Assembly: GCA_017533825.1 (NCBI GenBank)
Contig: JAFWIE010000017.1
Location: 62,001-126,000 of the forward strand
Direction of reading: 5' to 3'
Length of the DNA stretch: 64,000 nt
Source: Atopobiaceae bacterium
GTDB lineage: Bacteria; Actinomycetota; Coriobacteriia; Coriobacteriales; Atopobiaceae
Shown: piece by piece, positions 23,033 to 24,318 of the stretch
How positions within the stretch are numbered: the first letter of the stretch is position 1
Layout: every line of letters starts with the position of its first letter
Notes under the pieces: generated by a model
Database searches by the model: none
What the model was told of the DNA's origin: nothing
Seen by the model: the letters and a program-made list of their open reading frames with translations, nothing else
Program-made: the position numbers and the translations under genes

Positions 23033-23107
23033 GGGCGATTGGCTCAGGGGTAGAGCACATCCTTCACACGGATGGGGTCGCTGGTTCGAATCCAGCATCG
23101 CCCACCA
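23033..23107 (+). tRNA. tRNA-Val (anticodon CAC)
   Basis: A complete cloverleaf. The acceptor GGGCGAT pairs with ATCGCCC, and the D arm is GCTC/GAGC. The anticodon stem CATCC/GGATG has loop TTCACAC with CAC at 23065-23067. The T arm is GCTGG/CCAGC with loop TTCGAAT, and CCA is encoded. A strong terminator follows 12 bases later. tRNA 3' ends are common integration sites, and the DNA beyond it is unusual. Confidence 0.97.
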
Positions 23108-23155: not shown

Positions 23156-23223
23156 CGCGCGGTTCGGAGCGGTCGTCGAGCGCGATGTACTTTCCGTCGG
23201 CCCACCCTCGCGCCCGGCCTTCC

Positions 23224-23308
23224 CACGCGCCTGCTCTTCTCACGCGCCTGCTCTTCTCACGCGCCTGCTCTTCTCACGCGCCCGGCCTTCTCACGCGCCC
23301 GACCCACC
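23224..23308. repeat. 17-bp tandem repeat, five copies
   Basis: The unit CACGCGCCTGCTCTTCT is repeated three times without change (23224-23274). Two diverged copies follow: CACGCGCCCGGCCTTCT and CACGCGCCCGACCCACC. The tract is pyrimidine-rich on the plus strand and lies in non-coding DNA between the tRNA-Val terminator and the small peptide gene. It looks like a minisatellite that could vary in copy number between strains. Confidence 0.9.
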
Positions 23309-23328
23309 CACATGCCCGACCGTCCGCC

Positions 23329-23422
23329 AACTACTCAGCAGGTGAATATTATTCAAATCAATTTGGCAAAAGCGCAGGAAAATCGATTCGATAGTTTGAA
23401 AAGAGATACCTGCTGAGTAGTT
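23329..23422. repeat. 94-bp AT-rich element with 15-bp perfect inverted ends
   Basis: AACTACTCAGCAGGT (23329-23343) and its exact inverse ACCTGCTGAGTAGTT (23408-23422) enclose 64 bases that are much richer in A+T than the flanks. I see no flanking direct duplication and no coding capacity. It could be a MITE-like insertion, a transcribed long hairpin, or an operator pair. TTGAAA (23396-23401) and TAGTTC (23418-23423, 16-base spacing) inside it could make it a promoter for the peptide gene downstream. Confidence 0.75.
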
Positions 23423-23461
23423 CACCAACGCTGAGCCGAAAGACGCAGAGAGGAAACAACC

Positions 23462-23605
23462 ATGACAGAAGACAACATCCGCGTGAACACCGAAAGCCCC
23501 AACGTGTGCAGTGACGAGAATCTCGACGCAATCGCAGGCGGCTATGTTGTGTACCAAAGCGGCGAAGAATTTTTGCTATCGATGACCCCGATAGAGGAAC
23601 CATAG
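23462..23605 (+). CDS. Small peptide with double-glycine leader; possible bacteriocin or signal precursor, apparently frameshifted
   Basis: A 47-codon gene starting at ATG 23462 with GAGAGGA seven bases upstream. Residues 1-27 look like a double-glycine leader: acidic, then ENLDAIAGG ending at Gly26-Gly27. C39-type peptidase/ABC exporters cut such leaders. The remaining 20 residues start YVVYQSGEEF and end at TAG 23605. A run of five T at 23570-23574 seems to break a longer frame. If one T is added the protein runs on to TAG 23688 and gives about 75 aa, with an acidic part (AIDDPDRGTIEPLELSETD) and a basic tail (PRKRSKQVV). This may be a real mutation, a phase-variable tract or a sequencing error. 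No exporter or modifying enzyme is adjacent in this window. Confidence 0.6.
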   Translation: MTEDNIRVNTESPNVCSDENLDAIAGGYVVYQSGEEFLLSMTPIEEP

Positions 23606-23726
23606 AGCCCCTAGAGCTGTCCGAAACCGATAAAGCAAAACTGGCAGCAATGCCAATCCCGAGGAAACGCTCAAAACAGGTGGTATAGGAGCTGATCGTA
23701 ACCCATCCGAAGGCTCAAGAGGCTCG

Positions 23727-24095
23727 CTATCGCCTGCGCGCGATTCCGGCAAGTTCGAATGCCTTACCCAGGAGGGTGCGAATCTCCTCGTCCGTCACTG
23801 ACCCGTCAAGCAGCACGGTGATCCAGTTGTTCTGGTTCATCTTCCATGCGGGCAGGAAACCCTCGCGATCGCGGAGCTTACGGACCGTGGGTGGAGCAAG
23901 CTTCACGTTGAGAATGTCGATGCGACCCGCACGTTCTATCCCGAGATAGCGGCACCCGATGTTCTTCGTGGCGGCAAACCACTTCCTGTTGTCCAATCGA
24001 CTGTAGACGGTGACGCTGCGATCCGTCTCGAACGAGTGGCTGGAGTCGGCGTCAAAGTGACCGAGGACGTACGCGCTGAGTTCGGCTTGCGTCAT
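23727..24095 (-). CDS. MmcQ/YjbR family protein
   Basis: A 122-aa protein with the YjbR (CyaY-like) fold, a family described as DNA-binding but without a settled role. Recognisable parts are KWFAATKNIG, LNVKLAPPTVRKLRDREGFLPAWKMNQNNWITVLLDG and the last helix TDEEIRTLLGKAFELA. Start at 24095: AAGGAG four bases upstream. It faces the small peptide gene with its 3' end. Confidence 0.85.
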   Translation of the reverse strand: MTQAELSAYVLGHFDADSSHSFETDRSVTVYSRLDNRKWFAATKNIGCRYLGIERAGRIDILNVKLAPPTVRKLRDREGFLPAWKMNQNNWITVLLDGSVTDEEIRTLLGKAFELAGIARRR

Positions 24096-24318
24096 GATGC
24101 TCCTTCCGCACCTGCCGGGCAACCTTCCCATGCATTGTAGGACATACGAGGCGGTGTGAGTCAGAACCAGTCACATCGCGGTACTCCGCTTCGAGCCAAC
24201 ATGGGGTGGACGACACCGTCCCCGCATTCACATAGGTTGAATATGACCTAGCGGACATACCGACGTCAACCTCATCAATGCTAGTATGGAAACCACCTAA
24301 GCCTATCAAGGAGGAGCC

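What the first reader, a model, noticed from the sequence alone, without database searches (positions are those of the whole stretch)
23462..23688. Frameshifted double-glycine leader peptide, possible orphan bacteriocin or signal
A short gene with a good SD encodes an acidic 27-residue leader ending ENLDAIAGG, the mark of peptides cut by C39-type exporters. A stop ends it after 47 codons. If the T5 run at 23570-23574 were T6, the frame would continue through 37 protein-like codons to 23688, giving an acidic core and a PRKRSKQVV tail. The second frame avoids stops and has a balanced protein composition, which is why I think it is one gene. The T-run could be a mutation, a phase-variation switch or a sequencing error. 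I recognise no known peptide family.
Basis: partly seen in the sequence, partly recalled or inferred. Interest (0 to 1): 0.72.

Follow-up and report, generated by a model that had tools for sequence, protein, structure and literature searches.

The report
Broken orphan double-glycine peptide gene
A gut bacterium carries what are probably the damaged remains of a gene for a small exported peptide, one of a scattered set served by shared exporter genes elsewhere in its genome; that arrangement is known, although this peptide's relatives have no entry in the family libraries searched.

Summary
In detail: ATG at 23462 with a Shine-Dalgarno sequence, a 27-residue leader ending DAIAGG, T5 at 23570-23574, a stop at 23603-23605, and a second open frame to 23688. 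The host is an uncultured Atopobiaceae (Coriobacteriales). Its genome has NHLM-type C39/ABC exporters (TIGR03796 above cut-off in four places, two perhaps one locus) and about ten other scattered double-glycine or Nif11-like precursors. The leader matches those. The out-of-frame tail resembles the core of an uncatalogued precursor family (GGY...YxVIDDxxGxV...LRRK; 28 of 397 genomes of the order), with moderate support: 1-2% of shuffled tails score as well. No close homologue of the joined product was found. Best reading: a decayed orphan precursor. Besides the frameshift, its core is shorter than in all 34 relatives measured, leader position -12 is Cys where 40 of 42 have L/I/V/M, and a dispersed 94-nt palindrome ends 39 nt before the ATG. 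A second orphan precursor on the same contig has a nonsense codon. T5 is short for a phase switch and the site is not a good ribosomal slippery site. Rivals: an intact 47-aa precursor, or an assembly error.

The parts
23447..23453 (+). Shine-Dalgarno-like AGAGAGG, about 8 nt before the start codon
   Evidence: sequence
23462..23605 (+). 47-codon open frame as it stands, stop TAG; best read as the 5' part of a frameshifted precursor gene
23462..23542 (+). 27-residue leader ending in Gly-Gly; -4 Ile and -7 Leu fit the C39 consensus, -12 is Cys instead of L/I/V/M
23570..23574 (+). T5 run at which the frame is probably broken by one base
   Evidence: homology and codon tests
23575..23688 (+). second open frame (37 codons and stop), resembling the YxVIDD core of related precursors but shorter
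23329..23422 (-). 94-nt palindromic dispersed element with 15-nt perfect arms, ending 39 nt before the ATG; its conserved asymmetric centre TTCCTGCGCxTTT reads on the minus strand

Best explanation
A decayed orphan precursor gene of the double-glycine kind. Its ancestor encoded a Nif11/NHLP-like leader followed by a small core with the YxVIDD...LRRK pattern of other precursors of the order. Such a precursor is recognised through its leader helix by the C39 domain of an NHLM-type exporter encoded elsewhere in the genome, cut after Gly-Gly and exported. Here the loss of one base in the T run breaks the frame after 37 codons, so only a 47-residue product with a 20-residue tail can be made and the peptide has probably lost its function. 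Shown: the anatomy, the exporters in the genome, the leader similarity, the family in relatives. Inferred: one ancestral gene, export by those exporters, loss of function. Unknown: what intact relatives do.
For: Leader matches the precursor profile. Joined tail aligns with the conserved VIDD stretch; 24/2000 and 84/5000 shuffles, 17/2167 real pieces as good. First frame codes well, the second weakly. NHLM exporters in this genome and in all 16 of the genus. Signs of decay: joined core 48 aa against 57-73 in 34 relatives; Cys at -12 (in LahT most changes of Leu-12 stopped processing, PMC6363468); palindromic element just upstream; no counterpart next to YjbR in G011 or G012. Another orphan precursor on the same contig has a TAA in its leader.
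Against: The homology of the tail is only at the 1-2% level, and the codon score of the second frame is poor. No close homologue with an open joined frame was found in any collection, so the lesion itself is inferred from remote relatives. One genome only: a sequencing or assembly error cannot be excluded.
Confidence: 0.6

Rival explanations
1. The 47-codon frame is the intact gene: a short precursor whose 20-residue peptide YVVYQSGEEFLLSMTPIEEP is exported, as with short double-glycine signals or bacteriocins. The downstream open frame is chance.
For: It has SD, start, leader and stop as it stands. Other precursors of this genome have cores of 15-24 residues. A stop-free second frame of this length arises by chance in about 11% of cases.
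Against: Those short cores are of a different, mostly Cys-containing kind. The tail after the T run has homology support at the 1-2% level; the ten in-frame codons after it score below typical coding.
Confidence: 0.2
2. Assembly or sequencing error: the gene in the cell is whole and encodes the 75-residue precursor.
For: The break is in a homopolymer; only one assembly is held and its reads cannot be seen.
Against: The 64-kb window is tiled by long frames without another obvious broken gene, and five neighbouring genes align with G011 orthologues. T5 is short for such errors. Even joined, the core is shorter than that of its relatives.
Confidence: 0.12
3. A switch: slippage at the T run, in replication, transcription or translation, makes both a short and a long product.
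For: A T run exactly where two frames meet.
Against: T5 is short for phase variation or transcriptional slippage (general knowledge). In the zero frame the site reads GAA TTT TTG; a -1 slip would put tRNA-Phe on ATT, with a first-position mismatch, so it is not a canonical slippery heptamer (sequence). No conservation of the site could be shown.
Confidence: 0.04
4. A chance open frame with a fortuitous leader.
For: It lies in a gap where relatives carry other sequence and has no close homologue.
Against: The leader scores like real leaders, has an SD and codes well.
Confidence: 0.04

Closest known systems
Nif11-derived and NHLP precursor peptides with the NHLM export system (Haft, Basu and Mitchell 2010, PMC2887384; TIGR03793, TIGR03798; exporter parts TIGR03794, TIGR03796, TIGR03797)
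   Same: Leader end SDENLDAIAGG is close to the Nif11-type consensus ELSDEELEAVAGG given there; the genome carries NHLM exporters; paralogous precursors. That paper already reports such precursors beside these transporters in Eggerthella lenta, a relative.
   Different: The leader is short (27 aa) and matches neither leader model above cut-off; the gene is unlinked to an exporter; the frame is broken.
YxVIDD-core double-glycine precursors of Coriobacteriales
   Same: GGY at the cleavage site, and in the joined frame an IDD stretch at about the right distance.
   Different: Core 48 aa instead of 57-73, middle region missing, frame broken, support only 1-2%.
Class II bacteriocins and double-glycine signal peptides of Gram-positive bacteria
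   Same: Short acidic leader ending in Gly-Gly, cut by C39 exporters.
   Different: Only weak sub-threshold matches to such models (E 0.14-0.2); no bacteriocin, immunity or regulator gene was identified beside it, though the neighbours were not searched for one.

Membership tests
Double-glycine precursor peptides (C39 substrates) | Leader ending in Gly-Gly with hydrophobic residues at -4, -7 and -12 | tested here: inconclusive
   GG, -4 Ile and -7 Leu met; -12 is Cys where 40 of 42 relatives have L/I/V/M
Double-glycine precursor peptides (C39 substrates) | C39 peptidase/ABC exporter in the genome | tested here: met
   five C39 matches; TIGR03796 over cut-off in four places
Double-glycine precursor peptides (C39 substrates) | Cleavage after Gly-Gly and export | not testable with these tools
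   needs an experiment
Nif11-derived / NHLP precursors | Match to TIGR03798 or TIGR03793 above the curated cut-off | tested here: not met
   no such match for the 47-aa or the joined product; some other precursors of the genome do match TIGR03798
   E 0.0083 in the genome-wide search, leader part only; 20.9 bits
   present only if the frames are joined, and then with 1-2% of controls as good
   48 residues joined, 20 as it stands
Class II bacteriocin (PF10439 and similar) | Match above the curated cut-off | tested here: not met
   only PF04369 at E 0.2 and NCBIfam models at E 0.14-0.19, all below cut-off

The most novel reading that the evidence does not exclude
The window gene is a dying member of an undescribed family of exported small peptides or domains (YxVIDD core, 57-73 residues), carried as scattered orphans behind different leader types in Coriobacteriales, served by shared NHLM exporters and turning over quickly by gain and decay.
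Probability: 0.4. Interest if true: 0.5.

Novelty: new member of a known kind. Interest (0 to 1): 0.33.

Why it matters
The gene itself is most likely a relic. It leads to something more useful: all genomes of this genus that were searched carry NHLM exporters, and this one carries many unlinked precursors, among them a core family that neither Pfam nor NCBIfam recognised in the members scanned. Such orphans are missed by searches that need a gene cluster. Two broken precursor genes on one contig suggest that they come and go quickly, which could be tested across strains.

Tried and rejected
Close homologues of the joined product: none in 100 relatives, none convincing in 397 genomes of the order, none in genome contigs or IMG/VR. 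Members of the wider family in IMG/VR (two queries) or plasmids (one): none, so no sign of phage or plasmid carriage. Solved structures for the family: nothing convincing; best hit 8fjf at E 0.005 over about 30 residues. Rfam at the locus: only the tRNA reaches its gathering score. Structure prediction was not run: the joined product is a changed copy of a window protein, which the tool does not take. A link between the palindrome and precursor genes in general: rejected, its other copies lie beside other genes. Programmed frameshifting: rejected on the slippery-site argument.

Full report
What is there. Upstream lie a tRNA-Val (23033-23107), degenerate 17-nt tandem repeats and a 94-nt palindrome. 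Downstream, on the other strand, is a YjbR/MmcQ-like gene (23727-24131; named from its sequence, no family search was run on it).

The host. The window is part of a 4.2-Mb genome in 147 contigs. The two named records that carry the neighbouring YjbR-like gene are MAGs labelled Coriobacteriaceae (RUG14419) and Atopobiaceae (sheep jejunum). Their contig lengths equal those of G011:C13 and G012:C2, genomes that the search places in the window's genus.

Exporters. The genome has five C39 peptidase matches. Four belong to proteins above the cut-off for NHLM ABC1, TIGR03796 (three of the four also tested). At C45 and C2 three genes stand in a row: a short HlyD-like protein, ABC1, and an ABC2-like protein; the first and third are below their curated cut-offs. 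C48 and C64 carry near-identical copies and may be one locus. All 16 genomes of the genus have an ABC1 above the cut-off. None of the five C39 matches is on the window's contig.

Precursors. Profile searches and inspection gave about ten other double-glycine precursors in this genome, mostly unlinked to each other. One has a Nif11 leader above cut-off and some others resemble it below cut-off. Two (C45:8403-8702 and C132:32778-33029) share with precursors of relatives a core GGY...YxVIDDxxGxV...A...A...S...L..LRRK. A profile of this family finds 28 of 397 genomes of the order at E 1e-8, in 7 genera and 3 families. Pfam and NCBIfam gave no match above cut-off for the members scanned. One member has a longer N-terminal region that looks Nif11-like to the eye (L034), but NCBIfam did not match it. 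Frames around the two members in this genome were listed but not run against family libraries, so the absence of a modification enzyme there is an impression, not a test.

One broken gene? The leader matches the family. With the frames joined, FAIDDPDRGTIE falls on the conserved YxVIDD stretch. With the leader kept and the tail shuffled, 24 of 2000 scored as well; with a larger profile, 84 of 5000 shuffles and 17 of 2167 real window pieces did. Codon statistics are clear for the first 37 codons and weak for the second 37. Together the one-gene reading is likely, not certain.

Why a relic. Even joined, the core is 48 residues against 57-73 in 34 relatives, with the middle region missing. Leader position -12 is Cys; in LahT most replacements of Leu-12 stopped processing (PMC6363468). 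A dispersed palindrome ends 39 nt before the ATG, where the relatives at C45 and C132:32778 have other sequence; whether a promoter was lost there is a guess. No counterpart lies next to the YjbR-like gene in G011 or G012. On the same contig another orphan precursor has a TAA within its leader. An assembly error cannot be excluded, but the window shows no other obvious broken gene.

Mechanism. For intact relatives, from what is known of C39 exporters and the NHLM system (PMC2887384, PMC6363468), the peptidase domain binds the leader helix, the precursor is cut after Gly-Gly and the core is exported. For the window gene this is inferred for its ancestor. The present product would be a 47-residue precursor with a 20-residue tail. 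What the intact cores do is unknown; an unmodified exported peptide is the simplest guess.

Rivals and novelty. An intact short precursor (0.2), an assembly error (0.12), a switch (0.04) and a chance frame (0.04) are weighed in the rival list. Orphan double-glycine precursors with distant NHLM exporters are a known kind. The core family has no library entry that I found, and the literature searches returned no paper on it in these bacteria; only an open-licence library was searched.

Noticed in passing
window 23329-23422; other copies in L053, L058, L062, L066, L070, L072, L082 and, in G011, L055-L081: A 94-95 nt intergenic palindromic element with 15-nt arms AACTACTCAGCAGGT and a conserved asymmetric centre TTCCTGCGCxTTT. 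The two-armed pattern was found in 2 of 140 genomes of the family, 8 places in each; no target-site duplication was seen in eight copies; no Rfam family reached its gathering score.
   Followed up: partly
L118:8147-8413, minus strand (G000:C132, about 33.15-33.41 kb; outside the window): Another orphan double-glycine precursor with a Cys-rich core, whose leader is interrupted by an in-frame TAA.
   Followed up: partly
L121:6133-6324, L122:6587-6787, L126:2163-2372 (own genome): Nif11-like leaders (below cut-off) with short cores holding Cys and Trp or other aromatic residues; possible modified peptides with no enzyme identified.
   Followed up: no
L124:5691-5915 and L052:1405-1701: A second recurrent core type behind a double-glycine leader (GGILKPR...WPDDP.ITELP), in the own genome and in G011.
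   Followed up: no
window 23192-23327: About eight degenerate 17-nt tandem repeats between the tRNA-Val and the palindrome.
   Followed up: no
G000:C48 and G000:C64: Two short contigs carry near-identical NHLM exporter genes: a recent duplication or an assembly artefact.
   Followed up: no
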